Assembly (NCBI RefSeq): GCF_003856835.1
Contig: NZ_CP034145.1
Location: forward strand, 1,054,001 to 1,118,000
Origin: Haloplanus aerogenes
GTDB lineage: Archaea > Halobacteriota > Halobacteria > Halobacteriales > Haloferacaceae
Length of the DNA stretch: 64,000 nucleotides
Reading direction: 5' to 3'
A model generated the notes under the pieces. It was not told the DNA's origin. It was given only the letters and a program-made list of their open reading frames with translations, and searched no databases. Position numbers and translations under genes: made by a program. Numbering within the stretch: position 1 is the stretch's first letter; the number at the start of each line of letters is the position of its first letter. Positions 6,549-26,179 of this stretch are shown here, piece by piece.

Positions 6549-7178
6549 ATGGACAGCGCGACTCTCGGCAGACTCGCCGAGCAGTATCCCTGGTCCAGCT
6601 GGGTCGTGTGGGACGATTCGTTCCCCGACGACGACTGCGTCGAGGAGTGCCCGGAGCGGTTGTTCGAGTTCGTCCAGAACCACGCCGAGATGCTGACGGG
6701 AGAGACCGTATTCGTGGGCTTGAACCGCTCCGACGACCTTCCGGCCCCCTTTTCGAACTTCCACGCACCGACCCGGACGCACTACGATTACCGGCTCAAG
6801 GAGTTCGTACAGGATGGTGGGCTGCGTCGACTCCACGGCGCGTACATGACCGATCTCGTTGACGAAGTCGATGCCGACAGTCACAACGTCGACGCGACGG
6901 ACGAAGACGTCGCAGTGCTGCTGGAGCAGTTACAGTTACTCGGCGCCGACGAATATCATCTCATCTGCTTCGGGAACGACCCGTTCGATGCGCTGGTCGA
7001 GTATTTCGACGTCGACGTGTCCGCACACCCGCCCGAACTCAGGTGTGCGACGGTCGCTCTCGACGGGCTGATGCTCCACCTGTATCGGGTCTGGTTCTAC
7101 GGCCTCTACGGCGCCAATCAGGACAAGGTGGCCGTGCTGGAACGGCAACTACAGACGCTGAACGAGCAGGTCGTCTGA
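6549..7178 (+). CDS. Hypothetical protein, possible uracil-DNA-glycosylase fold, beside BREX island
   Basis: A 209-residue acidic soluble protein that I cannot assign with certainty. Several stretches recall the uracil-DNA glycosylase superfamily: VFVGLNRSDD, in the position of the GxNPS-type first motif, then GAYMTDLVDEV, and then YHLICFGNDPFDALVEYF, which recalls the strand and helix with the late conserved motif. The classic GQDPYH water-activating motif is absent, so DNA glycosylase activity is not shown. It lies 198 bases before brxA, in the same direction but apparently outside the brxA transcript, which has its own TATA box. It may be an accessory defence gene of the island or an unrelated neighbour. 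No signal peptide or membrane segment is seen. Confidence 0.6.
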   Translation: MDSATLGRLAEQYPWSSWVVWDDSFPDDDCVEECPERLFEFVQNHAEMLTGETVFVGLNRSDDLPAPFSNFHAPTRTHYDYRLKEFVQDGGLRRLHGAYMTDLVDEVDADSHNVDATDEDVAVLLEQLQLLGADEYHLICFGNDPFDALVEYFDVDVSAHPPELRCATVALDGLMLHLYRVWFYGLYGANQDKVAVLERQLQTLNEQVV

Positions 7179-7342: not shown

Positions 7343-7352
7343 AAATATAAAG
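7343..7352 (+). promoter_or_regulatory. TATA box of the BREX operon
   Basis: AAATATAAAG is centred 30 bases ahead of the ATG at 7377. It fits a leaderless transcript beginning at or just before brxA and argues against the longer frame that opens at 7179. The 160 bases upstream of it (7179-7342) hold no gene that I can support. Confidence 0.65.
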
Positions 7353-7376: not shown

Positions 7377-8216
7377 ATGATCCTCGTATCTGACGGCGGT
7401 GGTTCTCCACTCCCGTCGCTGTCTCGCCAGCTCTCGCCGGGAGACGTGAATATGGATCTAACTATGTGTGGGCTGCTCGTCGAGCGAGCCGAGGAACTCG
7501 CTCGACTCTACGCCGAGCATGGAAACTGGAACGATGTCCAGGACATATGGTTCGACGAACGCCTATCGAACCGGAGTACGAGAGGAAGTTCGCAAAAGAT
7601 CTACCGTGTCCTGACGTCGCGGTTCAAAAACGCTCCCACCGCGCTCCCGAATCCGAGCATTCTGCCGGCGATATTCGACGAGTGCCAGACGACTCGCGAC
7701 AAAGCGCAGATCCTCTACCTCTACCTCGTTTCGGACGATTCGCTCGTTCGGTACGTCGTCCACGAATACGTCGCTCGTGTCGCGCAAGGGAAGCAGGAAC
7801 CGCTCGACTTCTCGAACGAGACGCTCATCCAGATCCTCGATCGGCTCGAGTACTCTAACGGGGGTGGTTTCGACTATGCGGAGTCGACCACCGAACGGTG
7901 GTGTGAGGGATTCCGATCGGTGATGCGTGAAATCGGTGTCCTCGACGGGCAGCAGACGATCGTTGGCGACCCCCCGTCGATAGGCGATGTCCCGCTACTC
8001 GTCTCGATGGGCTACTCATACGGAGTCGACGGCGACGAGTGGCTCACTGAGCCACGCGGGCTGTTCTATCTCTTCCAACCGGAGGATCGCTGGGAGGAGT
8101 TCTTCGACCGGGTCGCTAGCACTGATGCGTGGGAGTACCTCGAGCTTCATGGCGAGCTCGACCTCCGTCCCACAGACGGGCCGTACTCGTGGGTACAAGA
8201 TGGAGGTGCTGTCTGA
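7377..8216 (+). CDS. brxA: BrxA (DUF1819) BREX protein
   Basis: The product has 279 residues from the ATG at 7377, chosen because a TATA box sits 30 bases upstream and because the extra 66 residues of the longer frame are Arg/Ser-rich and unlike a protein. Its position as first gene of a BREX operon and its helical make-up with an all-alpha core (WNDVQDIWFDERLSNRSTRG, then short helices with LYLYLVSDDSLVRYVVHEYV and STTERWCEGFRSVMREIGVL) match DUF1819 proteins, which are small helical proteins of BREX systems. BrxA of other systems binds DNA; that is family knowledge only. Its stop codon overlaps the brxC start by one base, so translation is coupled. Confidence 0.8.
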   Translation: MILVSDGGGSPLPSLSRQLSPGDVNMDLTMCGLLVERAEELARLYAEHGNWNDVQDIWFDERLSNRSTRGSSQKIYRVLTSRFKNAPTALPNPSILPAIFDECQTTRDKAQILYLYLVSDDSLVRYVVHEYVARVAQGKQEPLDFSNETLIQILDRLEYSNGGGFDYAESTTERWCEGFRSVMREIGVLDGQQTIVGDPPSIGDVPLLVSMGYSYGVDGDEWLTEPRGLFYLFQPEDRWEEFFDRVASTDAWEYLELHGELDLRPTDGPYSWVQDGGAV

Positions 8217-11200: not shown

Positions 11201-11992
11201 TCCGACCGTATCGACGCCACGTCCGACCGATTAACCGTGGTTCGGTCACAGGGCGATGGACTCGGAGCGGCAATCGAGCAGACAAACGAAGCGCAGGAGT
11301 GGTTCGACGAAGTTAGGGACGTCTGGAATCGGCGACTCGAGTCACTCTACCGGTTCGATGCACAGCTTACCGCGGCGGATGCTCGATTCGAATGGATCGA
11401 CGAGGATGTACAGTCGTCCGCCGCCTCTCAGCGCGAAGCTCTCGAGTCCTTCCAGGGTGACTGGTGGACGACTGACGGCTGGAAAGCACTCGTAGGAACG
11501 ACGACGACCGGACTCGACGAGGGGATTCAGGAGCTGTGGGATATCTACGTCGCTGCACAGGGCATTCCCGACCTCGTCGGACGTGTCGCAGAGCATCCGT
11601 GGGTGATTCCCGCCACAGAATTGCCCGCAGGAGTGCAGAGAGCGTTCGAGCGGACGTACATCACGCCGTACCGAGAGCTTCGACAGTGGTACGAAACGAT
11701 CGACGAGGCGATGTCGTCGCTCTCGGCAGATGACGAGGACACCCTCGTTTCAGCGGCGGACAACTTCGCTGGTGCGGAACCACTTGCTGAGGCAATAGAT
11801 CACGACGTGGAAGAACTCGACTCTCGACTCGACCGACTTACCGAAATCGTTGATGACCGGACGCCTGACGACGTCGACCAGATCGGTATGCTCCCTGACG
11901 ACCGTCAGACGATACAGAAACGACTCGAACGGCTCGTCGAAGAACGAGACTTGGACATCGAAACTACGGACTCGGGGGTGATCGTCCGATGA
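8216..11992 (+). CDS. brxC: BrxC/PglY-type P-loop ATPase, first copy
   Basis: A 1258-residue P-loop NTPase. Walker A is GYYGSGKSHLL at residues 69-79 and Walker B is LVLLLDEVSLFIG with Asp285 and Glu286; an arginine-rich region follows (TAQANIEDTQ, KDRFPHRYQLP), as in BrxC/PglY. The C-terminal half is a long acidic helical region with likely coiled coils around the final 200 residues. BrxC is an essential ATPase of BREX and is thought to act with the methylase and PglZ; it resembles Orc/Cdc6-like AAA+ ATPases in outline. The start at 8216 overlaps the brxA stop (TGATG), and the stop overlaps the brxB start by four bases. A second copy lies after brxB; the two are distant paralogues that keep Walker A at the same distance from the start. 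Confidence 0.88.
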   Translation: MVDRDWFDDLSDDFEESVRIDRNERDHRERAIQSYHMTADSRRFIQDFVDRMLDRADDMRTGSNYWLYGYYGSGKSHLLTVLDGLLDTDWLEGKQDTVWSDLAGDTRDETLDQLRDHWREIHEEYYVIPISVNLLKYQGQKQRSFSEIVLRHAHRDPDLTGVSDDISRGLSSQLDVAYFEKWFRTTEAWPERQDRAEAVLEGTTGSSRGYDWETDGLWKDIQQYGALADVVLPRLFEDVNGTIDGYADLKPSAIDAEETVSRLEKLRAEREKEHNQPVKLVLLLDEVSLFIGTDYGRLTELQSLAEKVDEIADDDIQLVVTAQANIEDTQPGFAAHGADFSILKDRFPHRYQLPSKHVGDIAKRRLFEKSESGERAVRDILEEASVKPAESLVYNDIKQNTKPPLDSIDEATLVEFYPFLPYHAPIFLEILFNLRQEASDPAKSIFSGTARAILALMHNLLQSWIEEDEPDHVISLVDLYEQIEPELREILTQDMRVIEGTRSGGDDDEVLVENEAVDELDASRGIADEVRDGELEPFDLKVAKAVLLLQHVHDIVPLDEGNIAVSVMSDLNGRSWISTQNRVEESLDRLQKFIRPNEDESGARYRFATQEERLIYDEAEDNERNPDWDAVLDTLDEHLWGRITQDLSLPDSVPYGDSGEEYPVTYGFGIDGTEFETTVDAEGGLDVSIEIRGVRPDATADNGDGETLYWSIDTDGLDDLRKHLVRWWALRDAISTHTTPPAVERDLSRRASTVRSKLVSAMGGGSYTVKDRTDIGGLSKAVQTAVDLGYPDDFHPMMLQVTDDRLQELAELSPDDPLPAWAHTIQVPSSDPSASQGKKTIQSNVMALTGRQLKDRDDGLNLNTVLDGIVSKKPFYDETRPALCAIIWGFCREGRLVPVDEDGNTLENEAVLDQDTLSTTRLKLLPREPIGNLLEDGGFKETTETVADGLINLQEANQRLRSSLTGLREDVQLVVATDVHSDAVSGLLDSFIEALSDRIDATSDRLTVVRSQGDGLGAAIEQTNEAQEWFDEVRDVWNRRLESLYRFDAQLTAADARFEWIDEDVQSSAASQREALESFQGDWWTTDGWKALVGTTTTGLDEGIQELWDIYVAAQGIPDLVGRVAEHPWVIPATELPAGVQRAFERTYITPYRELRQWYETIDEAMSSLSADDEDTLVSAADNFAGAEPLAEAIDHDVEELDSRLDRLTEIVDDRTPDDVDQIGMLPDDRQTIQKRLERLVEERDLDIETTDSGVIVR

Positions 11993-12579
11993 CGACCTCC
12001 CCGTATCGAGCGTTCAAAGAGAAACTCTGCACGTTCGCAAAAGGTCAGGCGGGTATCCGTAATCCGTTCGTTATTGCGGCTGTCGACCCCGCGATCGAAC
12101 ATCGAACTGCGAACCGACTCGATGCATGGGCGATCGGGACTGACGAGTTCCCAATCATCGATGAGGGCGTCTCCGTCCAACCGATCTGGCTCGACGAGCT
12201 GCTCCCACAGACCAAAGTGTACAATCTGTGCGTCGCGCTCGGAAGCGAGACGAGCCCGGAACGAATCGAGGGGACGATGCAGGACCGCCTCGCCGAAGAA
12301 CTCGTTCAGGAGATGAGGCAGAACGAGATCGACGGGGAACAGCTGGAGCAGCAAAGCCACGTCGTCTTGCTCCTCAATCTTGGTAGCCTCTACCCGTTTA
12401 CACGTGCTTCCGAGCTCCTCGACGAACTCGATCGTTGGAACGTCAGATCGACCATCGGTATTCCGTTCCCGGGAGACGTCGTCGGTGGGAAGCTGAGCTT
12501 CTTCGGCGGCGATTCACGACACTACTATCCAGCGCACCAGATCGACGGGCAGATTCGGGAGGTGCATCTCCAACAATGA
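11989..12579 (+). CDS. brxB: BrxB (DUF1788) BREX protein
   Basis: A 196-residue product, the usual length for DUF1788. The C-terminal half is strongly family-like: LLLNLGSLYPFTRASELLDEL, IGIPFPGDVVGGKLSFFGGD and YYPAHQIDGQIREVHLQQ. BrxB is found in nearly all BREX types; its biochemical role is not settled. It starts within the ATGA overlap with the first brxC and ends within an ATGA overlap with the second, so the three genes are translationally coupled. Confidence 0.93.
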   Translation: MTTSPYRAFKEKLCTFAKGQAGIRNPFVIAAVDPAIEHRTANRLDAWAIGTDEFPIIDEGVSVQPIWLDELLPQTKVYNLCVALGSETSPERIEGTMQDRLAEELVQEMRQNEIDGEQLEQQSHVVLLLNLGSLYPFTRASELLDELDRWNVRSTIGIPFPGDVVGGKLSFFGGDSRHYYPAHQIDGQIREVHLQQ

Positions 12580-15500
12580 GTCTCAAAGGGCTATTCCGCA
12601 GCGATCCAACCCGCCAACTCGAGGAGGTCCAGAAGGTCAACGCTCGCGAGCGAGCGGAGACCGACGTTGCAGAGTTCCACGAAACGGAGAGTGCCAAGCG
12701 TGTACTCACCGAACTCGGAGACATCATCGAAACGCATCCCGGAGAGGCTGCTCGGTTCCTCTACCTCCACGCGACGTTCGGATCGGGGAAGACTCACCTG
12801 CTGAAACTGATCGGCCTCGTCGCCGACAGTGAGTCCGAGTTCGCGCATCTGGGGGACACGTTGGCGGAGCAGTGGCCCGGATTCGACAACCTGGCGCACT
12901 CGATCGACGCGTCACACGTCGACCGGCTCAAGCCGGTGTTCCTGAACCTCCTCGATCGCGACGCCTCGAAGGAGCCGCCGCTCCCGTTCCTCATCTTCGA
13001 GGCAATCGGTCGCGAGCTCGGCTATCCGACCGACCCGAACTGGCTGTTGGAGTGGGCCTGGACCGTCGATATGGAGTACGACGGAGTCTGGGAGACCATC
13101 ACGTCGGGCGAGCGGGGCCAAGAGTTCGACGACGTGCTCGAAGAGCGTGCATCCCTGCGAAAGTGGCTCTACGAGACGCTCCCATCGATGTCGGAGACGA
13201 CGGGAACGGACCTCGACAGTCGGGACGGCGTGAAAGCGTCCATCGAACGAGCGGAGGACGAAGTGGAGCCCGAGTCGTTCGACCCAGCGGAACTGGTCGA
13301 CCGAGTCGAGACGATTACTGACTCACTGAACGAGGACGGACCACACAGCGAGCTCTTACTGGGCCTCGACGAGGTGGCGCTGTTCGTCGGCGACAGTCGG
13401 CATCGCTATCGTGAGTTCGAGGAGACGATGGAAGCGCTCCAGCACGGGCCGAATCCGGTCGTCGTCACGACTGGACAGTACTCGCTGCCTGCGACACGGG
13501 AAAGTCTCATCGGCGAACCCCTCGAAGACCACTGGACACATCAGCAGGTGCCGCTCGAAGGTGCTGATACGGAGATCATCGTCCGAAAGCGGTGGCTGCA
13601 GAAAGACGGGGCTGGCACCGAACGTGTCTCGTCGCTCATCTCATCGATGCCAGATCTCTCGCTGGAGACGTATGCACCAGTCGGGAGTGCCGATCCCGAC
13701 GCGGTCGAGTCCTATCCCTTCCGCGAGTACGACCTGACCCTGCTGCGAAAGGTGATGCAGGAGCTGATCACACAGGGCCGGGCCACGGATCGCGATTACA
13801 TTCAGGGTCGTGCACTCCTGGTGCTGGTGCGATCGCTGTTCACCAAGTTCGGCTGGGCGGATGCCGAGGAGGGCGAGCTGGTCACGTGGGACGAGCTGTT
13901 CGACCTCCTCGTCGAGGAGACGACCTACGTCCCACTGTGGGTCCAGGAGATGCTCGAGAACACGCTGATTCCGACGTTCGATGGGAACGAAGGCGCGTGG
14001 GAAGTTCGTGTGTCGAAGGCACTGTACCTCCTGAACCAGACGCCCGCTGTCCCAGCGACGCCGGAGAATCTGGGGCGACTGATGCTCGCTGACGTCGACG
14101 CGTCGGTCGATAGCGCAGTCGAGGAGACACAGTCTGCGCTGAACACGCTCGTCGACAAGCGCAAGGTGCTCACGGAGACCAACGACAAGGGCGACGAGGT
14201 GTACACGCTAGTCTCCGAGGAACAGGAGAGTGTCCTCAGCCGAGCGCAGACGAAGGCCGAGCAGATCTCGCCACACCAGCTCTCCGCCTGGCTCGAGACC
14301 CGACTTCGAGAGACCGACGACTTCTTCCGGAGTGACGGCACGCTTCACGACGCCGATATCGGGGACGAGCGCCTCGTCCCGCTTCGGTACGAGTACTCTA
14401 TCCTCGATCCGGTCGACCGAGCACCAAAGACCGAGTACGACGCGGTTCGAGTTCGTGTCCTTGCAGACGACCCAGAGACCGTTACGGAGCAGGTCGAGAC
14501 CTGGCAGGACGTGAACGACGGCCGAGACGGTGGTGAACACATCCTCATCTCGATCGACGTCCCGGAATCGACGCTGGACCGAATTCGGAACGTCATCGGG
14601 ATGAGTCAGGTGCTCGAGGAGGAAACGGAGAGTCACGAGGAACTAGAGCGCGAGCACCGGACGGACAAGCGACGGCTGGAATCGTCCGTCAGCGACCTGC
14701 TGGAGAACGCGTCAGTCTACACGGTTCACGACTACGAGGGAGAACGACCTACCGTCCTCGGCGAGGTCGTCGAAGCGCAGGTACAGGCGGTCTTCGGTTC
14801 GACCCGAAAAGTGCTCTCGCGCCCGCTCGTCGAGGTCGACGACGCGAAGGAGCTGGCGCAATTCTTCCGGGGCAGCGGTAGCTGGCCGCTCGCCGACGCC
14901 GACGCCGTGATGCTGGGTGTGGATACCTCGACCGCATCGATCGCGGATACCGGCTGGTGTCGGGCGTTCATCGACGAGTACGAGTCGAAGACCGCTGTGG
15001 ACGTCGAGACGTTGCTCCAGCAGACACGGACGGCGAACGGCGACTACCGGGGGACGCCACAGGAGTCGATTGCGGCGTTGCTCATCACACTGGCCACCTC
15101 GAACGAGACGGTCGCACTCAAGCAGGACACGGACTACGTGACCGATCCTGCGGCGATCGGTCGGCAGGTCCGGACGAAGGGTGGGCTCACCTCGCTCCAG
15201 GTGCGGTTTGGCGTCGACACGGTCGATCCCAAAGCGATTCGCAACGTGGTGTCGACGGTCCTCGGTGACGACCCCGAGGGCAACGACCCCGACGCGTGGG
15301 TGGCCGAACTCGGATCGTGGGTCGCCGACAACAGTATGCTCGTCAGGCGGACGTTCAAGGGTGTTTCACGGGAGTTCGACGTGTCTCTGGATGCCCTCGA
15401 AAGTGTGCTGTCACCAGCGTACAGTGGTGACGATATCACCACGGCAGAGCTGGTCACGGACGGCGTTCAGTCGGAGGCGGAGACGTTCGCGGATGCACGC

Positions 15501-16370
15501 GAACTCTTCGCCGCAGGAGACGGCGGGGAAACACTCTGGGACCAGTTCACCGCCGAGACCGAACTGCTGGAGGAGTGGTATCCCGGCGCGACGATCACCA
15601 GCCGAATGCAGACGACTGCGGAGAGCGGCTCTGTTCCGACGAAGACGACCGTGGCCTCGCGACTCGCGGATGCAACCGGTCATCGGGTCGACGAACTCTC
15701 GACGCAGTACCGTCGGGTGACTGGCGAGTCCGCCGACTCGACAGACCCGGACGAGATCTGTACGGAGCTGACCGAGTGGCTTCGCGAGAACGAGTCGACG
15801 GTCGACACGCTGCTCGACGATGCCACGGCTACGTTCGGTGGTGTGTCCTTCGAGGAGCTGGAGTCGGTTTTCGAAGTCGCATGGACCGATCGGCTGATCG
15901 GAGAGCCCGAACTCGTCGACCCGGTGGTCACACAGCAGGCCACGGCGTACGAGCAGGCCCGAGAGATACTTCGGGGCGACCCGAGCCCGTGGGCGCAGTT
16001 AGAAGCCAGAGCGGAGACGCTCCGTGCCGACCATCCAGAATCGCCGACGACGAAGGCCATCGACTCGACGCTGGGTGCAGCACGGCCGGTCTCACTCGAG
16101 GAAGTTCGACGACTCCTCGCCATGCCGGTTATCGGTGGGGACGACATCTGGACGGAACTCCAACGTGTCGCCGAAGAGCTCCGGCAGGAGCTTCCGAACG
16201 CCGACGTCACTGACGACGTGACGGGGGTAGTCGACGCGGACGACCGGCCGACCGACGAACGAGCGACGGAACTTCTGGACGAGTCCGAGAAACTGCTGGC
16301 CCGAATCCGCGAGGTCAGAGCGGCACTGGACGACGTCGACGACGGCGATATCGTATTGATCGAAGAGTAG
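12576..16370 (+). CDS. brxC: BrxC/PglY-type P-loop ATPase, second copy
   Basis: A 1264-residue P-loop ATPase. Walker A ATFGSGKTHLL lies at residues 66-76 (Lys72) and Walker B is LLLGLDEVALFVG with Asp265 and Glu266. It starts at the ATG at 12576, overlapping brxB; the open frame to 12435 is only an extension into brxB. The rest is long, acidic and mainly helical, with repeated charged helices after residue 600. It shares layout with the first copy but little sequence, so the duplication is old and the two may form a hetero-oligomer or have separate tasks; that is inference. Two BrxC/PglY copies are a mark of type 5 BREX. The end of the gene is followed by a 76-base gap before pglX. Confidence 0.88.
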   Translation: MSLKGLFRSDPTRQLEEVQKVNARERAETDVAEFHETESAKRVLTELGDIIETHPGEAARFLYLHATFGSGKTHLLKLIGLVADSESEFAHLGDTLAEQWPGFDNLAHSIDASHVDRLKPVFLNLLDRDASKEPPLPFLIFEAIGRELGYPTDPNWLLEWAWTVDMEYDGVWETITSGERGQEFDDVLEERASLRKWLYETLPSMSETTGTDLDSRDGVKASIERAEDEVEPESFDPAELVDRVETITDSLNEDGPHSELLLGLDEVALFVGDSRHRYREFEETMEALQHGPNPVVVTTGQYSLPATRESLIGEPLEDHWTHQQVPLEGADTEIIVRKRWLQKDGAGTERVSSLISSMPDLSLETYAPVGSADPDAVESYPFREYDLTLLRKVMQELITQGRATDRDYIQGRALLVLVRSLFTKFGWADAEEGELVTWDELFDLLVEETTYVPLWVQEMLENTLIPTFDGNEGAWEVRVSKALYLLNQTPAVPATPENLGRLMLADVDASVDSAVEETQSALNTLVDKRKVLTETNDKGDEVYTLVSEEQESVLSRAQTKAEQISPHQLSAWLETRLRETDDFFRSDGTLHDADIGDERLVPLRYEYSILDPVDRAPKTEYDAVRVRVLADDPETVTEQVETWQDVNDGRDGGEHILISIDVPESTLDRIRNVIGMSQVLEEETESHEELEREHRTDKRRLESSVSDLLENASVYTVHDYEGERPTVLGEVVEAQVQAVFGSTRKVLSRPLVEVDDAKELAQFFRGSGSWPLADADAVMLGVDTSTASIADTGWCRAFIDEYESKTAVDVETLLQQTRTANGDYRGTPQESIAALLITLATSNETVALKQDTDYVTDPAAIGRQVRTKGGLTSLQVRFGVDTVDPKAIRNVVSTVLGDDPEGNDPDAWVAELGSWVADNSMLVRRTFKGVSREFDVSLDALESVLSPAYSGDDITTAELVTDGVQSEAETFADARELFAAGDGGETLWDQFTAETELLEEWYPGATITSRMQTTAESGSVPTKTTVASRLADATGHRVDELSTQYRRVTGESADSTDPDEICTELTEWLRENESTVDTLLDDATATFGGVSFEELESVFEVAWTDRLIGEPELVDPVVTQQATAYEQAREILRGDPSPWAQLEARAETLRADHPESPTTKAIDSTLGAARPVSLEEVRRLLAMPVIGGDDIWTELQRVAEELRQELPNADVTDDVTGVVDADDRPTDERATELLDESEKLLARIREVRAALDDVDDGDIVLIEE

Positions 16371-16446
16371 CTATCAGGAGACGAAACCCGTCGGCAACAT
16401 TAAAGACGCTCCTGTCAGTCGGTGTTAGCATACTGGATTACGTTCG

Positions 16447-19400
16447 ATGGCAGGCGATTCACTCTCTCGACGGAAGGCACAACTGGACAAGGCCGAACGT
16501 GAACATCTCGAAGATGTCGTCGAAGCTCTCCGCGAGCGCGTCGAGGACAACGTCCGATATCAACTGACACAGAAGGGACTGGACGACGAGCCGGAGAATC
16601 CGGACGAGTTGGACGACGATATCCAGCACCTCGTCGAGGCGATCGACCTCGAAGCCGTCGACGGTCACACGTGGGACGAGGCGGTCGAGCAGTACGTCAC
16701 GGGTGTCGGGTACACCATCGTCAACCGTCTCGCCGCGCTGCGCTGTATGGAGGTGCGTGACTTCGTCGACGAGGAGGTCACCGTCTTCAAAGAGAACGGC
16801 CTGACGCCTGCCGCCGAGACGCTCGTCCACGAGAAGTTCTTGCTGGAGGACGAGGCGATTCTGGAAGCGTACCACAACGCCTGTGAGAGACTGGCCGACG
16901 AGATCGAGATCCTGTTCGACCCAGAGTCGGCGTACAGCCAACTCGATCCCGACGACGACACGTTCGAAGCACTCTGTCGGATGCTCGACGAGGTGCCTGA
17001 CGAAGTATGGCGTGCAGACGACGTGCTGGGGTGGGTCTACGAGTACTACAACACCAAACTACTCGACGACCTTCGACGGAAGGGTGACAGAGTTGGCCTC
17101 GATCCCGAGGACGTTCCACCGGCGAACCAGTTCTACACGCCGCACTGGGTCGTGCGGATGCTCACCGACAACTCGCTCGGGAAGCTCTACCTCGAACACA
17201 CCGGCGAGTTGCAGGACGTCGTCGAAGCGCAGGAAGCGTTCTCCCCGGACGAGCGCAAGAACCGACCACTCTCTCCCGACGAGTCACCCGATATCGCCGA
17301 TTTCTGCACCTATCTCGTTCCCTCCGAGGAGGAGGGCGAACCGACCGACTTCGACCACCCCGACGAACTGCGCGTCATCGACCCCGCCTGTGGGAGTGGC
17401 CACTTCCTGCTGTATGCCTTCGACGTGCTGGAGCGCATCTGGCGGGCCGAGACGGACCGCCCCGAGGCGGAGATTCCGCGGCAGATTCTCCAGCACAATC
17501 TCTACGGCGTCGACCTGGATATGCGGGCCTGCCAGCTCGCGGCCTTCAATCTGTATCTGAAGGGCCGGACCCGAGCCGAGGCGGAGGGTGCGGACGGGTT
17601 CGACATGCCCGAGGTCGGCATCGTCTGTGCGGACGCGAAGGTGGCCGAGATCGACGGCGTCGAGGCAGTGTTCGACGAGGTGGCTGGCGACGATCCGCAG
17701 GTCGAGAACGCGCTCCGGCGGATTCTCGACGCGTTCGAGGAGGTTCACGGTCTCGGGAGTCTGCTCGACGTGCGCGGGACGCTCGGTGATCTGTTCGAGG
17801 ACGACAGCGATGTCGGGGGCACGCAACTCACGCTGGGCGACGACCCGCGGGAGAGCCACACGCTGGGGCAGGTGCTGCACAGTCTGCGCGAGGCCGTGGA
17901 CGAACACCGGGAGTCGGATTCGTTTCTGGCGCAGGATCTGCGGAGCTTCGTGCGATTGCTGGATATTCTGGCCCAGGACTACGACGTGGCGTTGATGAAT
18001 CCGCCGTATGGCTCAAATCTCAGAATGCCTGAACAGGTTCAAGAATACACAAAATCCAAATTTGACTACCCGTCGGAATTTTATATCAATTTTTTTGAAG
18101 TCTGTGATCAGGTTGCCAAACCTAGTGGTCGAATCGGAATGCTCGTTCCTCGATCGTTCATGTTCAAGTCGAGTTTCAGGCAATTCCGAGAGGACTTCAT
18201 AGGGGAATACGGAGAATTCGACTTCCTAGCGGAGTTCGGAATTGGAATACTAGATAATGCAACGGTACGAACCGTTGGAACGGTCGTAAGATCGTCCGAG
18301 AAGGGCGCTAGTAAAGGTCGATTCATCCGACTACACGATATCGATGCCGGTAAGAAGGAAGGTATCTATTCGAAAGTCCTTAGTGAAGAGACAGACGGTG
18401 TGAAGCGGTTCTACGAAGTGCATCTGGCCGAGTTCAAGCGAATCCCCGGATCTCCACTAAGCTACTACATCCCTCATGAGATCCGTCAGTATCATCAGTC
18501 AGATGTGAAGATAGATTCATCTCATGGAGAACTTGATGCTGATTCGCTCGCTTATGCAAGGCAGGGATTGACTACTGCGAATGATGACCGATTTCTTCGC
18601 GATCACTGGGAAGTGACTGATTCTTTGTTCCACCCGATTGCGACAGGAGGATCTAACGCTTGGATTCTTCCGAGTGTGACAGAGAAGGTCGCTTGGGGCG
18701 AGAAAGGAGAGCAAATAAAACGGTCTCCCGGTTCATTCCGAACCCGAAACGAGGATCATTACGGAAAGCCGGGACTCACTTGGACATACATAAAGTCCAC
18801 TGGACGTAGATTCGGATACTTCCCTAAGAACGGAGTATATAGTAATACCGGGTTCATGCTGGTCCCGAGAGAGAATAAGTCTCTGTGGAAGATTTTGGCA
18901 GTTCTTAATTCAGACTTCTATCATGAGATTTTCCTATCTCTCAGTACTGAACGAAACTGGGACGCGGGAATCGTAGGGAGCGCACCATGGATTGACGCTA
19001 CATACTCCATCGACTTGCTTGAGGAACTGGTACAAGAACAGTATGAGTGCGTAGTATCTCTCCGAAGCAGGGACCCAAAGAGTCCTTACTACATGAGCCC
19101 CAGCCTCATTTCTGGTGAGTGTGATTCCAGTTTCTACTACGATCACGATCATATCAATCTCCTCCCTGATTGGGTAGATGTCCGCTTAGATTCGGGAATT
19201 AAAACAGCATCTATTGCAACGACTGCTCGACAAGAAGAAGTTAGAAAGAGAAAACTACAGCAGCGGTTGGAAGAAATATCTGAAAGAATAGACAGCCTTC
19301 TGTACGATGAGCTGGATATATCCGAAAATGTTCAGGAGCAAATACGTCAAGAGATCTTCCTCCGAACTGCCGAAAACCCTGACGACCGGAAGGTACCTGA

Positions 19401-20766
19401 TCCCGAATCGGTTCCCAAAGTTCCAGACAATATCGGTGAGCAAGTCAGAGACCTCGTTCATCATTTCGCGATGGAAGCTGTCCGCAAGGAGGCCGACGGC
19501 ATCATCCCTCTCCACAGCACCAACAGCCAACTCGATATGCTCAACCGCATCATTGCGCAGTTCGAGAATGTCTACGGCGAGTACGCCGAGGACCGCCTCG
19601 TCGAGGTCGACGAAATCCTCGGCGCCCAGTCCGCCGCCGAGGAGGCCTACCCCAACCTCCGGTCGTTCGTCGAGAACGACCTGTTCGACTACCACGTGAG
19701 CCGGATGGAGAACACACCGATCCTCTGGAAGCTCACCACAGAGCGCCTCGTCTCCGACTCGGCGGGCGAGGGCTTCGCCTGCTTCGTCGACTACCACAGC
19801 CTCGATTCGGGGCTCCTGGACCGACTCGCCAATCAGTACCTCGAACCGCGGAAGGCCGAACTTCGGGAACGCCGGTCGGCGGCGAACCGCCGCCGGAGCG
19901 ACGAATCCCTCTCGACGAGTGAGCAGGCCGAAGCCGCCGAGCAGTACGAGCGCTGTGCGAGCGGACTCAACCAGATCAGCGTCTTCGAGGACGTGCTTCA
20001 GGACCTGGGTCGCACCGACGCGCGCGACTTCGACGACGAGGATCGACAACTCGTCGAGGAACTCGCTCCGAAGGTCGCCACCTTCCGCGAGGAGACCCGC
20101 GAGCGCGTGGAGACGCTGGCGGAACTGCGGGAGCGCAACAGCGAGGAGTGGTTTCAGGACACCTTCTCGGACAACTTCTGGAACGCCGTCGACGAGTGGC
20201 GCGAGGAGTGGCTCGACGCCCTCGACGAACTCGAACGCGCGTGCGAGGCGTACGCCAAGCCCGCCGACGAGTCCGTCGAAGCACATCTGGCCGATCTGTT
20301 CGACTACTTCAACTGGCGGCTCAAGGGGTCCGACCACTACTCCAGCACCGGTATCCTGTTCATGACCTACTACTTCGAGCGCGAAGGGGCCGACCTCCTC
20401 GACGACGACGGGCAACCGTTCGAGACGCTGACCGACGACGAACGCCTGCTTGCCTCGCTCGCGACCGGTCTCGACGACCCCTCGATTGTCGACGCGGAGT
20501 TCCTCGAAGCGATGGCCGACGACGAGCGCGTCGAGCAAGTCGACGATCTCCCGCCACTGGAGGAGTTCAAGGCGTTGGCTGCGGAGATCGACGACCGCTG
20601 CCAGACCATCGACGAGCGCATTCCCTCGGATTGGACTGACCGCGCCCTCTCCGAGATAACGACCGAAGGGTACCAGCCGAACCACAAGCACGGTGTCGAA
20701 ATCAATATCACACCGCTCGCACGGGCAGAAATCGTCCCGAAGACGGTGGAAGACGACGTTCTCTGA
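16447..20766 (+). CDS. pglX: PglX-like BREX DNA adenine methyltransferase
   Basis: A 1439-residue N6-adenine methyltransferase of the gamma-like class. The SAM-binding motif I is DPACGSGHFLLYA starting at Asp312, and catalytic motif IV is NPPY at 518-521. The N-terminal 300 residues are helical, as in BREX PglX, and the region after NPPY (residues about 522-1010) is the target-recognition part, followed by a long helical C terminus with several coiled-coil-like segments. It methylates a short asymmetric site on one strand so that host DNA is spared; the recognition sequence cannot be read from the gene. The stretch 18006-19480 is clearly AT-richer and uses rarer codons than the rest of the gene. 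There are no frameshifts, stops or inteins. Confidence 0.92.
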   Translation: MAGDSLSRRKAQLDKAEREHLEDVVEALRERVEDNVRYQLTQKGLDDEPENPDELDDDIQHLVEAIDLEAVDGHTWDEAVEQYVTGVGYTIVNRLAALRCMEVRDFVDEEVTVFKENGLTPAAETLVHEKFLLEDEAILEAYHNACERLADEIEILFDPESAYSQLDPDDDTFEALCRMLDEVPDEVWRADDVLGWVYEYYNTKLLDDLRRKGDRVGLDPEDVPPANQFYTPHWVVRMLTDNSLGKLYLEHTGELQDVVEAQEAFSPDERKNRPLSPDESPDIADFCTYLVPSEEEGEPTDFDHPDELRVIDPACGSGHFLLYAFDVLERIWRAETDRPEAEIPRQILQHNLYGVDLDMRACQLAAFNLYLKGRTRAEAEGADGFDMPEVGIVCADAKVAEIDGVEAVFDEVAGDDPQVENALRRILDAFEEVHGLGSLLDVRGTLGDLFEDDSDVGGTQLTLGDDPRESHTLGQVLHSLREAVDEHRESDSFLAQDLRSFVRLLDILAQDYDVALMNPPYGSNLRMPEQVQEYTKSKFDYPSEFYINFFEVCDQVAKPSGRIGMLVPRSFMFKSSFRQFREDFIGEYGEFDFLAEFGIGILDNATVRTVGTVVRSSEKGASKGRFIRLHDIDAGKKEGIYSKVLSEETDGVKRFYEVHLAEFKRIPGSPLSYYIPHEIRQYHQSDVKIDSSHGELDADSLAYARQGLTTANDDRFLRDHWEVTDSLFHPIATGGSNAWILPSVTEKVAWGEKGEQIKRSPGSFRTRNEDHYGKPGLTWTYIKSTGRRFGYFPKNGVYSNTGFMLVPRENKSLWKILAVLNSDFYHEIFLSLSTERNWDAGIVGSAPWIDATYSIDLLEELVQEQYECVVSLRSRDPKSPYYMSPSLISGECDSSFYYDHDHINLLPDWVDVRLDSGIKTASIATTARQEEVRKRKLQQRLEEISERIDSLLYDELDISENVQEQIRQEIFLRTAENPDDRKVPDPESVPKVPDNIGEQVRDLVHHFAMEAVRKEADGIIPLHSTNSQLDMLNRIIAQFENVYGEYAEDRLVEVDEILGAQSAAEEAYPNLRSFVENDLFDYHVSRMENTPILWKLTTERLVSDSAGEGFACFVDYHSLDSGLLDRLANQYLEPRKAELRERRSAANRRRSDESLSTSEQAEAAEQYERCASGLNQISVFEDVLQDLGRTDARDFDDEDRQLVEELAPKVATFREETRERVETLAELRERNSEEWFQDTFSDNFWNAVDEWREEWLDALDELERACEAYAKPADESVEAHLADLFDYFNWRLKGSDHYSSTGILFMTYYFEREGADLLDDDGQPFETLTDDERLLASLATGLDDPSIVDAEFLEAMADDERVEQVDDLPPLEEFKALAAEIDDRCQTIDERIPSDWTDRALSEITTEGYQPNHKHGVEINITPLARAEIVPKTVEDDVL
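18006..19480 (+). other. Low-GC mosaic block in pglX (target-recognition region)
   Basis: Immediately after the NPPY codons the sequence shifts from GC-rich haloarchaeal codons to AT-rich ones (TTTTTT, TATATC, AAATCC, AGA/AGG arginines, ATA isoleucines), and it shifts back near 19480 (ATGGAAGCTGTCCGC onward). The block covers about 490 residues. It looks like a swapped target-recognition segment, joined at a conserved motif; the boundaries are visual estimates. Confidence 0.7.
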
Positions 20767-20768
20767 TC

Positions 20769-22919
20769 ATGCCAGCAACCAAGACTCTCCCACAGTGCGC
20801 CCACGACGCCATCGAGAGCGCAATCGACGACGCGGCCGACGAGGACCCCGTCATCCTCTGGTGGGACGACGGCGGCTTCCTCCGAGACATCGTCGAAGGC
20901 GCGAGTACCGAACTCGGCTGTGCGTTCCGTGCGGCCGAGCAGACCCCGTTAGAACTCCGTGGGGACGCCCCACGCGACCGAACCGTCTGGTACGTCTCCC
21001 AGCCCAGCAGCGACGACGTGGACTGGTTCAAGGACGTCGAACACACCGGTGGGGTGGTCGAGCAGCATATCGGCAAGCTCGCTGCACGCTGCTTCGAGAA
21101 CGACCCACTCCAGGCGGCGACGATCCGCACCGCCTACGAGGACGCCGAGGACCGTGAAAAGGTCGCCCAGACGCTCTACGAGGAACTCGACGGCGAGGGT
21201 GGACTCCCATCGCTCCAGGGCCTCCAGACGAAGATCGTCCTCGATGGTCACGACGATCCCGTGCAGTTCGTCCTCGAACACGGCACGCGGAACCTCCCGG
21301 AGGGTGACGATCTGCTACAGATCCGTGACCTGCTGGTCGACGAGGGCGTCATGGCCGTCGAGGGCGAGTCCGACGCTCGCACCATCGTCGAACACACACG
21401 CCGCTGGGCGGTCGCCGAGTGGCTCGTCGACGAAGGACTCGACACGTCCCTGCTCCCGCAGGCGTACCAGCCCGACCCGAACGCTGGATTCGGAATCTCC
21501 AGACCCGAACTCCGGTCGGTGTTGAGCAAGACCGAACGGAAAGCGGCGCTGGCGAACGTCTATCTCGACCCGAATCAGCGCTTCTGGCACGACGTCCTCC
21601 GCACCTACGAGGATCCGTGGGAACTCGTCGACTGCCCCGTCGACGCGTCGCTCGAACACCGGCTCTGGGACGAGTGGACCCAGTCGTTCGACGGCGGCGA
21701 CTACGAGACGTGCGTCACCAACGCGAAGCAGCGTCACGAACGGCTCGAATCGACGTACGGTGACGTCCCGTGGACGCACGTCTGGGAGCAGGCGATCGAC
21801 GTGGCGACGCTCGCGAACGAGCTCCAGACCTGGGAAGAGCGCGGCGACACGAACGACGTCGTCGACCTCTACGGCGACGTCGACGACGGGACCTGGCAGA
21901 TCGACAACGCGGTGTTCAACCTCGTCGTCTCGGGCGCCCCCGAGAAGCAACTCCCCGAAGAGCATCCAGCGACGGTCACGCTCGATGACCTCCGGACCTC
22001 GCTGGTGGAGTCGAAGTACCTCGAGTATCTCACCGATCTCGGCGACCTCGTCGTCGACCAGATCGACGCCGGATCGCCGTTCGTCGGCGAGAACCACGCC
22101 CACCAGTTCTTCGCCGAGGAGCAGGAACACCTCCAGAGCGGCCAGAGCGTCGCGCTGTTCATCGTCGACGCGTTGCGGTTCGACCTCGCACACGAACTCG
22201 CGGAGTCAATCCGGCGCGAGATTCCTCGGCTCGAAGTCGAGGAGAGCACCTGGGTGGGCACGCTCCCGTCCGACACCGAGTTCGGGAAGGCTGCGCTCAC
22301 GCCCGGCAGCAAGTTCAGCTTCAACATCGACTTCGAGGACGGAGAGTTGATCCCCGAACGCAATGGAAAGAAGATCACCAACTACCGTCGGCAGACGCTC
22401 CTCGAGAACGACGGCTGGAGCTACATTATGAAAGACGAAGACGACGAGGTGGGCTGGAGCAACACCCGCGTCGCCTACTACTGGAACGATATCGACGAGA
22501 CCGGCGAGAAGGAGCTGACGAATTTCGAGGAGCTGTTCAGCGACCGGATCGACGCCATCTCTCGCATCATCTGTGAGAAGCTGCGGAAGGGCGAGTGGGA
22601 CCGTGCGTACATCCTCTCCGACCACGGCTTCGTCTCGCTCCCGAGGCACGTCGACATCGACGACCTCCACCCGCCGGACGGAGCGCAGAAAGTGACCCGT
22701 CGATGGGTCGCAGGGAAGGATCTCGACGACGATGCACCAGGGGTCTTACTCGACGAGGACACCCATCTGGGTTACCTCGACGACGATGCCAGGGTCAGTA
22801 TCCTCGCCGATCCGATCCAGCGATTCCGCAATCAGGGCCTTCCTGACGCACGGTTCTACCACGGTGGCGTCCTCCCGCAGGAGTTCGTGCTGAACTTCGT
22901 CACGATCACGCAGGAGTAA
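20769..22919 (+). CDS. pglZ: PglZ alkaline-phosphatase-superfamily BREX protein
   Basis: A 716-residue product. The core motif IVDALRFDLA holds the metal-site Asp467 and Asp472, followed by STWVGTLPSDTEFG and, later, ILSDHGF with Asp618 and His619; together they form the metal-binding site of PglZ. The N-terminal domain of about 350 residues is helical, as in other PglZ proteins, and the C terminus ends RFYHGGVLPQEFVLNFVTI. PglZ is the defining BREX component and carries a phosphatase or nuclease-like fold; its reaction in type 5 is not shown. It starts two bases after pglX and ends six bases before the helicase gene, so one transcript is likely. Confidence 0.93.
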   Translation: MPATKTLPQCAHDAIESAIDDAADEDPVILWWDDGGFLRDIVEGASTELGCAFRAAEQTPLELRGDAPRDRTVWYVSQPSSDDVDWFKDVEHTGGVVEQHIGKLAARCFENDPLQAATIRTAYEDAEDREKVAQTLYEELDGEGGLPSLQGLQTKIVLDGHDDPVQFVLEHGTRNLPEGDDLLQIRDLLVDEGVMAVEGESDARTIVEHTRRWAVAEWLVDEGLDTSLLPQAYQPDPNAGFGISRPELRSVLSKTERKAALANVYLDPNQRFWHDVLRTYEDPWELVDCPVDASLEHRLWDEWTQSFDGGDYETCVTNAKQRHERLESTYGDVPWTHVWEQAIDVATLANELQTWEERGDTNDVVDLYGDVDDGTWQIDNAVFNLVVSGAPEKQLPEEHPATVTLDDLRTSLVESKYLEYLTDLGDLVVDQIDAGSPFVGENHAHQFFAEEQEHLQSGQSVALFIVDALRFDLAHELAESIRREIPRLEVEESTWVGTLPSDTEFGKAALTPGSKFSFNIDFEDGELIPERNGKKITNYRRQTLLENDGWSYIMKDEDDEVGWSNTRVAYYWNDIDETGEKELTNFEELFSDRIDAISRIICEKLRKGEWDRAYILSDHGFVSLPRHVDIDDLHPPDGAQKVTRRWVAGKDLDDDAPGVLLDEDTHLGYLDDDARVSILADPIQRFRNQGLPDARFYHGGVLPQEFVLNFVTITQE

Positions 22920-22925
22920 CCACCT

Positions 22926-25835
22926 ATGAACGACCTCGCCCCCGGAGCCACGATTCTCCTCAACGACAACCCCGCCGAGGTCATCAAGACGTACTCCGTC
23001 GGCAACCTCGAGTACCTGCGGGCCTACGTCGAGGACGTCGGCGTCAAGACCGTCTGTATCGACGACGTGGAGATAGAGCGGAAGCAGGACCAACTCGGTG
23101 CGCTCGAACCGACGACAGCAACCCAGCTGCATCCTGACCACGAGTCCGTCTCTGCAGAGTGGTTCGATCTCCGGTCACAGGCACTCCAGCTCCAGATCGC
23201 CCACGAGCAGGGACAACTGCTCTCCATCTCGAATTCACTGGTCCGCCTCGAACCGTACCAACTCGCCTGCGTCAACTGGGTGATGCAGAAGCTCCGACAG
23301 CGAGCGCTCATCGCCGACGACGTCGGGCTGGGCAAAACCATCGAGGCAGGGCTCGTTCTCAAAGAACTCACCGCACGCAACCGAGCCGATCGCGTCCTGT
23401 TCGTCGTGCCCGCACACCTCCAGAAGAAGTGGATTCGCGACATGGACCGCTTCTTCGACATCGACCTCACTCCCGCTGATCGGCAATGGGTGGAGGGCGA
23501 ACGCCGCCGTCTCGGCGAGGAAGCCAACATCTGGGATCAGGACCACCAGCAGCTGGTCACGAGCATGGCGTTCCTTCGACAGGAAGAGTTCCGCGAGGAA
23601 CTCGACGACGCGTTCTGGGACGTTGTGGTCGTCGACGAGGCACACAAGGCGGCCAAGCGTGGCGAGTCTCCGAGCAAGACGTCGAAGATGGTCGAGCGCG
23701 TCGCCGACAACTCCGACTCGCTCCTCCTGCTGAGTGCGACGCCACACGACGGCAAGGGCGAGGCGTTCCGCTCGCTCGTCGAGTACATCGACCCCTTCCT
23801 CGTCGCCGAGGATCAGGACCTCTCGAAGGAGGCGGTCGACCGGGTGATGATGCGCCGTGGGAAACAGACCATCTACGACGACGACGGCGAGCGGATCTTC
23901 CCGAATCGGGAGGTCGGGACCATCCCGGTCGAGATGACCCACGAAGAGCGCCAGTTCTACCGTGCGGTCACGGACTACGTCAAGCACGTCTACAACCGCT
24001 CTGAACAGCTCAACGAGCCTGCCGTGGGCTTCGCGATGGCGCTGATGCAGAAGCGTCTCGTCAGCAGTATCGGAGCGATCAAGGCGACGCTCAGCCGCCG
24101 ACTCGCGAATCTCGTCGATCAACAGTCTTCGTCGACGTCTCTCTCCGAGGAGGCCTCGGCCTATCTCGAGGGAGAGGACCTCGACGAGCAGGATCAGCAG
24201 AAGGCCGAGGAAGAGCTCGCAGGGCTCACGATCACCGAGAGCGACGCCCAACTCGAAGAGGAGATCGAGACGCTCAGGGACCTCGTCTCGCTCGCAGAGG
24301 GCATCCCTGTCGATTCGAAGGCCCAGAAGGTCCGACGGTACATCCAGCAATTGCTCGAAGAACAGCCCAACGAAAAGGTGCTGCTGTTCACGGAGTACCG
24401 CGATACGCTCGACTACATCCTCGAACTCGTGAAGGACGAGCCGTGGGCCGACGAGATCCTCGTCATCCACGGCGGGGTCGACAAGGAAGACCGCGCTCGC
24501 ATCGAGGACGAGTTCAACCACGGGCAGTCCCGTCTGCTCTTCGCGACCGACGCAGCCAGCGAGGGGATCGACCTCCAGCACAGCTGCCACATCATGGTCA
24601 ACTACGAACTGCCGTGGAACCCGAACCGCCTCGAACAGCGCATCGGTCGCCTCCACCGCTACGGCCAGGAGAAGGAGGTCAAAGTGTGGAACTTCTCGTT
24701 CGAGGACACCCGCGAGAGCGAGGTGTTCGAGCTGCTCCAGGAGAAGGTCGAGACCATCCGCGGCCAACTGGGGAACACTGCCGACGTGCTGGGGATGCTC
24801 GACGACATCAACGTCGATTCGCTCATCATGGAGTCCATCCGGAACGACGAGCCAGCGAGTGCAACCAAGGAGGAACTCGAAGAGCTAATCGACGAGCGAC
24901 AGCAGACGCTCGCGGAGTGGTACGAACGGAGTCTCATCGACACCAGCACGTTCGACGAGGAGAGCCGCCGGAAGATTCAGGAGGTGATGGATCAGTCCGC
25001 GGACGTCTATGGGAGTGAAGCCGACATCCGGCAGTTCTTCGAGCTGGGTATCTCCGCGCTCGGTGGGGACGTCGAAAAGGTCGGAAACAACCTCTTCCGC
25101 GCTGAGTTGCCCGAGTCGCTTCGACGCTCGCGGGACGGTGAGCTATACGGACCGTTCACCTTCAACCGCGAGTTCGCGATGGACCACGACGGTATCGAGT
25201 ATATCTCCCCCGATGCAGACCTAGTCCAAGAACTGATGCAGCGGGTACTCGATAGCGAGCAGGGTGCGGTGGGTCTCAAGCTGCTCCCGTTCGTCGACGA
25301 GCCGGGAATCACCTACAACTACCGCATCAGATTCGAGGACGGGACAGGGGAAGTCATTCGAGAGGAGATACTCCCCGTATTCGTCGATGCGGCGCATCGT
25401 GACCCTCAGCAGCGCCTCGGCCAACGAATCATCGAGGGAGACACGATCAAAGGCTCTCCGGATGGGGACCGTGTACGTACGCTCCTCGAACACCGGGGCG
25501 AGATGCGTTCGTCAGCCGACCGATACGTGAGTCAGCGTGTCGAATCACGACGCGACAAACTCCGAGAGCGTCGTAGAGAGGAGACGCAACAAGAACTCGA
25601 CGATCTCGAGACCTACGCGGAAGCCGAACGCGAACGGATCGAGACGTTCATCGCGGATTACGAGCGGAAAGCAGATGCAGGGTCCGACATGGATATCGCG
25701 ATCCGGCGACAGCGGGATCGGCTCTCGAAGCTGGAGGAGCGGATCAAGAAACGTCGACGGGAACTACAGCGAAAAGCGCAGGTCATCTCGTTGGCACCCG
25801 AAGTCGAGAACATCTGTCTCACGATCCCAATCTAA
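22926..25835 (+). CDS. brxHII: BrxHII-type SNF2-like helicase
   Basis: A 969-residue superfamily 2 helicase. Motif I is ADDVGLGKT with Lys137, the DEAH box is at 237-240, motif III is LLLSATPHDGKG, and the C-terminal helicase domain has LLFTEYRDTLDYILEL, VIHGGVDKEDR, ATDAASEGIDLQ and RIGRLHRYGQ (about 572-581). The last 130 residues are highly charged coiled coil. This is the helicase subtype that marks type 5 BREX; DISARM DrmD shares much of this core, but no other DISARM gene is present. It probably remodels or unwinds DNA using ATP. It is the last gene of the operon. An Arg-rich open frame overlaps its end in another frame (25537-26049) and is not a gene. Confidence 0.9.
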   Translation: MNDLAPGATILLNDNPAEVIKTYSVGNLEYLRAYVEDVGVKTVCIDDVEIERKQDQLGALEPTTATQLHPDHESVSAEWFDLRSQALQLQIAHEQGQLLSISNSLVRLEPYQLACVNWVMQKLRQRALIADDVGLGKTIEAGLVLKELTARNRADRVLFVVPAHLQKKWIRDMDRFFDIDLTPADRQWVEGERRRLGEEANIWDQDHQQLVTSMAFLRQEEFREELDDAFWDVVVVDEAHKAAKRGESPSKTSKMVERVADNSDSLLLLSATPHDGKGEAFRSLVEYIDPFLVAEDQDLSKEAVDRVMMRRGKQTIYDDDGERIFPNREVGTIPVEMTHEERQFYRAVTDYVKHVYNRSEQLNEPAVGFAMALMQKRLVSSIGAIKATLSRRLANLVDQQSSSTSLSEEASAYLEGEDLDEQDQQKAEEELAGLTITESDAQLEEEIETLRDLVSLAEGIPVDSKAQKVRRYIQQLLEEQPNEKVLLFTEYRDTLDYILELVKDEPWADEILVIHGGVDKEDRARIEDEFNHGQSRLLFATDAASEGIDLQHSCHIMVNYELPWNPNRLEQRIGRLHRYGQEKEVKVWNFSFEDTRESEVFELLQEKVETIRGQLGNTADVLGMLDDINVDSLIMESIRNDEPASATKEELEELIDERQQTLAEWYERSLIDTSTFDEESRRKIQEVMDQSADVYGSEADIRQFFELGISALGGDVEKVGNNLFRAELPESLRRSRDGELYGPFTFNREFAMDHDGIEYISPDADLVQELMQRVLDSEQGAVGLKLLPFVDEPGITYNYRIRFEDGTGEVIREEILPVFVDAAHRDPQQRLGQRIIEGDTIKGSPDGDRVRTLLEHRGEMRSSADRYVSQRVESRRDKLRERRREETQQELDDLETYAEAERERIETFIADYERKADAGSDMDIAIRRQRDRLSKLEERIKKRRRELQRKAQVISLAPEVENICLTIPI

Positions 25836-26078: not shown

Positions 26079-26102
26079 TAGTCCCGGGCGGATTCGAACC
26101 GC
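26079..26102. repeat. Direct repeat of the tRNA-Gln 3' end (att-like)
   Basis: These 24 bases are identical to 26179-26202, which is the 3' end of the tRNA-Gln gene, exactly 100 bases away. With one mismatch at 26103, similarity goes on for four more bases. Copies of a tRNA 3' end next to a defence island are a typical scar of tyrosine-integrase insertion. Confidence 0.75.
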
Positions 26103-26129
26103 GGTCGTTCCGCGTTGCTCCACTCCCTG

Positions 26130-26150: not shown

Positions 26151-26179
26151 CCGCTCCTCACGTTCGTTCGTCGCAGGAT

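What the first reader, a model, noticed from the sequence alone, without database searches (positions are those of the whole stretch)
7377..25835. Complete BREX type 5 phage-defence operon with two distant BrxC ATPases
The gene order (BrxA, BrxC, BrxB, BrxC, PglX, PglZ, BrxHII) is rarely studied outside a few bacterial BREX types. The two BrxC copies share Walker A at the same offset but little else, so they may be partners in one machine. All seven frames are intact and tightly packed.
Basis: partly seen in the sequence, partly recalled or inferred. Interest (0 to 1): 0.7.

Follow-up and report, generated by a model that had tools for sequence, protein, structure and literature searches.

The report
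Haloarchaeal BREX type 5 defence operon
This is a complete copy of a known archaeal antivirus system (BREX type 5); the new point is that, of its two related ATPase proteins, one has lost in every relative examined the arginine needed to switch on a neighbouring subunit, which suggests that the pair works as one lopsided machine.

Summary
All seven genes at 7377-25835 are intact, tightly packed and full-length matches to BREX profiles. PglX and PglZ exceed NCBI's BREX-5-specific cut-offs more than two-fold. The locus is an ordinary member of BREX type 5, a type defined in 2015 and reported as haloarchaeal; about 16% of sampled Halobacteria carry it.

'Little else in common' between the two BrxC copies is wrong. 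They are homologous over about 800 aligned positions and both resemble type I BrxC.

The useful new result concerns their active sites. BrxC1 keeps Walker A, Walker B, sensor 2 and the trans-acting arginine finger (R330 of solved Acinetobacter BrxC) in 59/59 sequences. BrxC2 keeps the ATP site in 63/63, but the finger column is tryptophan in 63/63. Type-5 BrxB also lacks the arginine that is invariant at its C-terminus in six type I BrxB sequences. BrxC1 is therefore the only visible finger donor, which predicts an obligate, one-way BrxC1-BrxC2 hetero-oligomer. Supporting this, the two co-occur in 61/61 genomes and co-diverge (r = 0.986), whereas PglX is freely exchanged (r about 0.17).

The operon sits beside tRNA-Gln, at a site that is empty in two congeners. 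No complex, methylation or phage protection was tested. The hetero-oligomer is inferred.

The parts
7343..7351 (+). candidate archaeal TATA element (AAATATAAA), 26-34 nt upstream of the brxA ATG, compatible with a leaderless transcript of the operon
   Evidence: read directly from the sequence; inference, not tested
7377..8216 (+). brxA (279 aa), predicted DNA-binding BREX protein
   Evidence: PADLOC BrxA 489 bits over residues 1-277; Pfam PF08849
8216..11992 (+). brxC1 (1258 aa), complete AAA+ ATPase: K75, D285/E286, finger R346, acceptor E306, sensor-2 R451
   Evidence: PADLOC PDLC02474 2085 bits; matches solved Acinetobacter BrxC 9zll/9zdx/9zn5; residue mapping
11989..12579 (+). brxB (196 aa); the type I C-terminal YYR arginine is proline 181
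   Evidence: PADLOC BrxB 342 bits; PF08747; column counts
12576..16370 (+). brxC2 (1264 aa), AAA+ ATPase with intact ATP site (K72, D265/E266, R412) but no arginine finger (W320)
   Evidence: PADLOC PDLC02473 2154 bits; residue mapping; AF2 model of residues 1-600 matches 9zll/9zdx
16447..20766 (+). pglX (1439 aa), N6-adenine methyltransferase and specificity subunit, BREX-5 type; lowest G+C of the operon lies inside it
   Evidence: NCBIfam NF033454 2328 bits, cut-off 900; PF07669/PF02384; composition
20769..22919 (+). pglZ (716 aa), BREX-5 type alkaline-phosphatase-fold protein, predicted nuclease/phosphoesterase
   Evidence: NCBIfam NF033444 1199 bits, cut-off 250; PF08665
22926..25835 (+). 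brxHII (969 aa), Swi2/Snf2 helicase
   Evidence: PADLOC PDLC02504 2026 bits; PF00176/PF00271
26179..26251 (-). tRNA-Gln (TTG), right border of the acquired island
   Evidence: ARAGORN, Rfam; empty site in congeners
26079..26106 (+). 28-bp near-copy (27/28) of the tRNA-Gln 3' end, 100 bp inside the island: attachment-site-like remnant
6549..7178 (+). 209-aa ORF of unknown family between the left flank genes and brxA; no match at the congeners' site, so probably part of the island
   Evidence: no family match (only a sub-cut-off Pfam match); no match in sites L182-L189

Best explanation
A chromosomal BREX type 5 antivirus cassette. By analogy with type I BREX, PglX marks non-palindromic host sites with N6-methyladenine, and unmarked viral DNA is attacked by a BrxB-BrxC-PglZ core with BrxA and the helicase BrxHII. 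What sets type 5 apart is that the BrxC function is split. BrxC1 is a complete AAA+ subunit that can bind ATP and reach into a neighbour's ATP site with its arginine finger. BrxC2 binds ATP and can receive a finger but has none to give. The best-supported model is an obligate, polar hetero-oligomer: BrxC1 donates fingers to BrxC2 (and possibly to BrxC1), and BrxC2 is a terminal or capping subunit that stops homo-polymerisation, much as clamp-loader and origin-recognition complexes mix finger-bearing and finger-less AAA+ subunits. Type-5 BrxB has lost the arginine that is invariant at its C-terminus in type I, so BrxC2 may have taken over part of the capping and switching role that BrxB plays in type I. 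Shown here: gene identity, conserved active-site asymmetry, strict co-occurrence and co-divergence, PglX exchange. Inferred: the hetero-oligomer, its polarity, the phage protection and the methylation.
For: Family identity. Active sites mapped by profile alignment to Acinetobacter BrxC, whose K78, E269, R330 and R430 were seen to contact ATP at the dimer interface (PMC13326643): BrxC1 K/DE/R-finger/R-sensor2 59/59 and E289 equivalent 59/59; BrxC2 K/DE/R-sensor2 63/63, E289 equivalent E/D 59/63, finger column W 63/63 under three alignment settings. The AF2 model of BrxC2 puts W320 four residues before strand 5 (324-327), the spacing R330 has from the segment aligned to strand 5, and its best solved matches are Acinetobacter BrxC (E 9e-18). 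R330E in Acinetobacter abolishes AAA+ self-association, restriction and methylation, so a finger-less BrxC should not self-assemble through that face. BrxB YYR: R in 6/6 type I, P in 63/63 type 5. Co-occurrence 61/61; order A-C1-B-C2 kept wherever the contig allows; distance correlation C1-C2 0.986 on 24 complete loci.
Against: No complex was modelled or measured. The BrxC2 model has mean pLDDT 68 and the finger loop is not in a high-confidence stretch; the BrxC1 model failed (mean pLDDT 58). BrxC2 has invariant arginines elsewhere (R128, R277, R337, R339), one of which could serve as a finger. K326, the second finger residue in Acinetobacter, is I in BrxC1 too. BrxB keeps a nearby arginine (R177, 62/63). 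The paper names 'R182' as the BrxB finger, but residue 182 is asparagine in the near-identical sequence examined, so which BrxB arginine is meant is uncertain. Co-divergence also follows from simple co-inheritance of an operon.
Confidence: 0.55

Rival explanations
1. Division of labour without contact: BrxC1 serves one complex (for example methylation) and BrxC2 another (restriction), each with its own BrxB-PglZ, so they are paralogues in one pathway but not in one ring.
For: Type I data show separable methylation and restriction states (PMC13326643). BrxC2 keeps D/E at the Acinetobacter D204 position that contacts BrxB (45/63), whereas BrxC1 mostly has Q, so BrxB may prefer BrxC2.
Against: BrxC2 has no finger and BrxB lost the YYR arginine, so a BrxC2-only complex would lack any known trans-activator of its conserved ATP site.
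Confidence: 0.25
2. BrxC2 is a nucleotide-binding scaffold that never hydrolyses ATP: it binds ATP stably, like some ORC subunits, and caps BrxC1 arcs from the face without a finger.
For: Walker A and sensor 2 kept, finger absent; weak structural matches to ORC subunits after BrxC itself.
Against: The Walker B catalytic glutamate is kept in 63/63, which is not needed for binding alone.
Confidence: 0.15
3. BrxC2 keeps its finger in another residue (R277, R337 or R128) and the two BrxC are ordinary, interchangeable ring subunits.
For: These arginines are invariant in BrxC2; the finger loop is poorly resolved in the model.
Against: R277 aligns with R297 of BrxC1 in the helix after Walker B, and R337/R339 lie in the helix after strand 5, next to the KR of type I BrxC; neither is where R330 sits.
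Confidence: 0.05

Closest known systems
BREX type 5 (Goldfarb et al. 2015; NCBIfam NF033454/NF033444; for example Halococcus dombrowskii plasmid NZ_CP095006)
   Same: Same seven genes in the same order (brxA, brxC, brxB, brxC, pglX, pglZ, helicase) and BREX-5-specific PglX and PglZ models far above cut-off.
   Different: Nothing in gene content. Here the operon is chromosomal at tRNA-Gln, and the genome has a second, stand-alone PglX.
BREX type I (Acinetobacter, E. fergusonii, E. coli)
   Same: BrxA, BrxB, BrxC, PglX and PglZ homologues; BrxC1 keeps most of the active-site residues.
   Different: Two BrxC instead of one, the second without the finger; BrxB without YYR; BrxHII helicase instead of BrxL; BrxB lies between the two BrxC.
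BREX type I/6-like haloarchaeal system of Natronosalvus caseinilyticus (NZ_CP100395)
   Same: Haloarchaeal host, BrxA, BrxB, BrxC, PglX, PglZ.
   Different: One BrxC, with BrxE and BrxL; its BrxC has both finger residues.
RFC/clamp-loader and ORC AAA+ assemblies (from general knowledge)
   Same: Proposed to work alike: mixed AAA+ subunits, some of which bind ATP but give no arginine finger.
   Different: No family membership is claimed. Structural matches to ORC are weak (TM 0.2-0.3).

Membership tests
BREX type 5 | BREX-5 class PglX methyltransferase | tested here: met
   NF033454 2328 bits against cut-off 900; BREX-1, -6 and -2 models far lower
BREX type 5 | BREX-5 class PglZ | tested here: met
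   NF033444 1199 bits against cut-off 250
BREX type 5 | two brxC genes | tested here: met
   PDLC02474 2085 bits and PDLC02473 2154 bits
BREX type 5 | brxA and brxB in the same operon | tested here: met
   PADLOC 489 and 342 bits
BREX type 5 | BrxHII helicase in place of BrxL | tested here: met
   PDLC02504 2026 bits; the seven genes fill the operon, leaving no room for brxL
BREX type 5 | found in Halobacteria | tested here: met
   61 of 391 genomes drawn from the window's own class carry BrxC2; named relatives are almost all haloarchaea
BREX type 5 | site-specific N6-adenine methylation of host DNA | not testable with these tools
   needs PacBio or nanopore methylome
BREX type 5 | protection against viruses | not testable with these tools
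   needs infection assay
BREX type I | BrxL present, one BrxC | tested here: not met
   no BrxL; two BrxC
DISARM (because the helicase resembles DrmD) | DrmD equivalog above curated cut-off | tested here: not met
   NF038317 487 bits, cut-off 610; BrxHII model 2026 bits

The most novel reading that the evidence does not exclude
BREX type 5 runs on an obligate asymmetric AAA+ assembly in which BrxC1 is the only arginine-finger donor and BrxC2 a finger-less acceptor and cap. This moves the assembly switch that BrxB and BrxC share in type I onto a dedicated second BrxC.
Probability: 0.45. Interest if true: 0.65.

Novelty: new member of a known kind. Interest (0 to 1): 0.42.

Why it matters
Why type 5 BREX carries two BrxC has had no explanation in the literature that could be read here. 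A universally conserved, one-sided loss of the arginine finger turns that into a question that a few point mutations in a haloarchaeal host can settle. It also offers a natural counterpart to the laboratory R330E mutant, which kills type I BREX, and so could help separate BrxC assembly from BrxC ATPase in a system whose mechanism is still unclear.

Tried and rejected
1) 'PglX loss forces loss of BrxHII because restriction without methylation is toxic.' Four loci (L062, L074, L083, L133) have intact A-C1-B-C2-Z but lack both PglX and BrxHII; in L062, L083 and L133 remnants of both genes flank an intact PglZ. Rejected as a rule: several genomes have a split or IS-interrupted PglX with an intact BrxHII (for example G065, G079, G358). 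2) 'Orphan PglX compensates for a missing operon PglX.' Intact PglX does lie elsewhere in G239, G334 and G108, but this genome has both, so it remains a possibility only. 3) Invertible PglX cassettes in the window: no second PglX near the operon; the only other copy is 1.6 Mb away. 4) Full attachment-site pair around the island: only one extra tRNA-3' copy was found, 100 bp from the tRNA. 5) BrxC1 structure: poor model (58), not searched. 6) Reading the 2015 founding paper: not held.

Full report
WHAT IS THERE. Seven consecutive + strand genes fill 7377-25835. The frames are open from ATG to stop and the junctions are overlapping or 2-76 nt apart. PADLOC's best models span nearly the whole of every protein: BrxA 489 bits, BrxC (PDLC02474) 2085, BrxB 342, BrxC (PDLC02473) 2154, PglX 2338, PglZ 1230, BrxHII 2026. 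NCBI's type-specific models place PglX (2328 bits, cut-off 900) and PglZ (1199 bits, cut-off 250) in BREX-5. Both BrxC proteins match NCBI's general BrxC model below its cut-off (236 and 143 against 400), and in named BREX-5 plasmid records the BrxC genes are annotated 'hypothetical protein'. The observation and its main interpretation are therefore right. Type 5 was defined in 2015 and is described as confined to Halobacteria (quoted in PMC9240713). A 2026 survey counted 160 taxa and regards it as a subtype of type 1 (PMC12839542).

HOW COMMON. In 391 Halobacteria genomes, BrxC2 was found in 61 and BrxC1 in 63. All 61 have both. The two extra BrxC1 hits are one at a contig end and one truncated copy. 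A scan of GTDB genomes found 49 loci. Almost all were haloarchaea, plus one bacterium, Salinivenus lutea, and one short contig labelled Mollicutes. Wherever the contig is long enough and the genes are intact, the order is brxA-brxC1-brxB-brxC2. One clade has pglX and brxHII divergently transcribed on the other strand.

THE TWO BrxC. They are not near-strangers. Profile-profile comparison gives BrxC1 against type I BrxC E = 1e-43, BrxC2 against type I E = 3e-34, and BrxC1 against BrxC2 E = 1e-24 over 799 columns. BrxC1 finds solved Acinetobacter BrxC by sequence; BrxC2 does not. An AF2 model of BrxC2 residues 1-600 (mean pLDDT 68) nevertheless has those structures as its best matches.

The solved dimer shows ATP held by K78, E269 and R430 of one subunit and by K326 and R330 of its neighbour (PMC13326643). 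I mapped these residues with six type I BrxC as reference, in which all five are invariant. BrxC1 keeps K, DE, R330 and R430 equivalents in 59/59 sequences, and E289, the partner-side contact of R330, in 59/59; K326 is isoleucine in 58/59. BrxC2 keeps K, DE and the R430 equivalent in 63/63 and an acidic residue at E289 in 59/63. Its R330 column is tryptophan in 63/63, and the K326 stretch is missing from the alignment. Three alignment settings agree. In the model W320 lies four residues before strand 5, the same spacing as R330 from its aligned segment. The bacterial copy has the same pattern, 'DDRF' in BrxC1 and 'DAWY' in BrxC2.

BrxB. In type I, BrxB docks on the same BrxC face and offers an arginine, which the paper calls R182. 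Residue 182 is asparagine in the near-identical A. haemolyticus BrxB, so the number is probably a slip for R82 or R185. Type-5 BrxB has threonine at the R82 position and proline at the R185 position in 63/63, though R177 nearby is kept in 62/63. I therefore treat the BrxB part as suggestive only.

MECHANISM. The laboratory mutant R330E stops AAA+ self-association and abolishes restriction and methylation in Acinetobacter. A protein that lacks this arginine by nature but keeps the whole ATP site should not assemble with itself through that face, yet should be able to receive a finger. BrxC1 is the only visible donor. The simplest reading is a polar BrxC1-to-BrxC2 assembly with BrxC2 as acceptor and cap. 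This is inference. Separate complexes, or a purely ATP-holding BrxC2, remain possible.

MODULARITY. Pairwise protein distances on 24 complete loci correlate at 0.93-0.99 among BrxA, BrxB, BrxC1, BrxC2 and PglZ (C1-C2 0.986), but only 0.15-0.18 with PglX. PglX is a mosaic against the window copy (for example near 90% in one block and near 20% in the next). It is often interrupted by transposons, doubled within the locus, or present as a stand-alone gene elsewhere in the genome. So the core travels as a unit while the specificity subunit is exchanged.

WHERE IT SITS. In congener G232 the left-flank genes run straight into tRNA-Gln and the suf genes with about 160 bp between, and G135 shows the same empty site. 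Here about 19.7 kb intervene. G239 carries a decayed copy of the same operon at the same site. A 28-bp near-copy of the tRNA 3' end lies 100 bp inside the island. The cassette is thus an acquired island at a tRNA gene, with no integrase recognised in it.

VERDICT. An ordinary, intact member of a known system, with one specific and testable new observation about why it has two BrxC.

Noticed in passing
G000:C1:2705426-2709607 (L098:8424-12752): A second intact BREX-5 PglX stands alone among metabolic genes, 1.6 Mb from the operon and 55% identical to the operon copy; similar stand-alone PglX genes occur in other genomes of the genus.
   Followed up: partly
window 31002-37505 (-): DNA polymerase B gene of 2167 aa with intein splicing, Hint and LAGLIDADG domains: apparently at least two inteins.
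   Followed up: no
window 26079-26251: tRNA-Gln with a nearby 28-bp copy of its 3' end; congeners show the site empty (L182, L187) or occupied by a decayed BREX-5 (L188): an integration hot spot.
   Followed up: partly
L062, L074, L083, L133: Operons with intact brxA-C1-B-C2 and pglZ but without pglX and brxHII; in L083 the two ends of both genes remain, in L133 both ends of pglX and the start of brxHII.
   Followed up: partly
L147 (Salinivenus lutea NCRC01000015.1): A complete type-5 gene set in a halophilic bacterium, against the statement that type 5 is confined to Halobacteria; contamination of the assembly was not excluded.
   Followed up: partly
PMC13326643, section on BrxB:PglZ: The BrxB arginine named R182 does not fit the sequence (residue 182 is N); R82 or R185 is probably meant.
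   Followed up: yes
window 38647-42668 (-): A SMC/Rad50-like ATPase gene overlapping a calcineurin-like phosphoesterase gene: probably Rad50-Mre11 repair genes, not part of the defence island.
   Followed up: no
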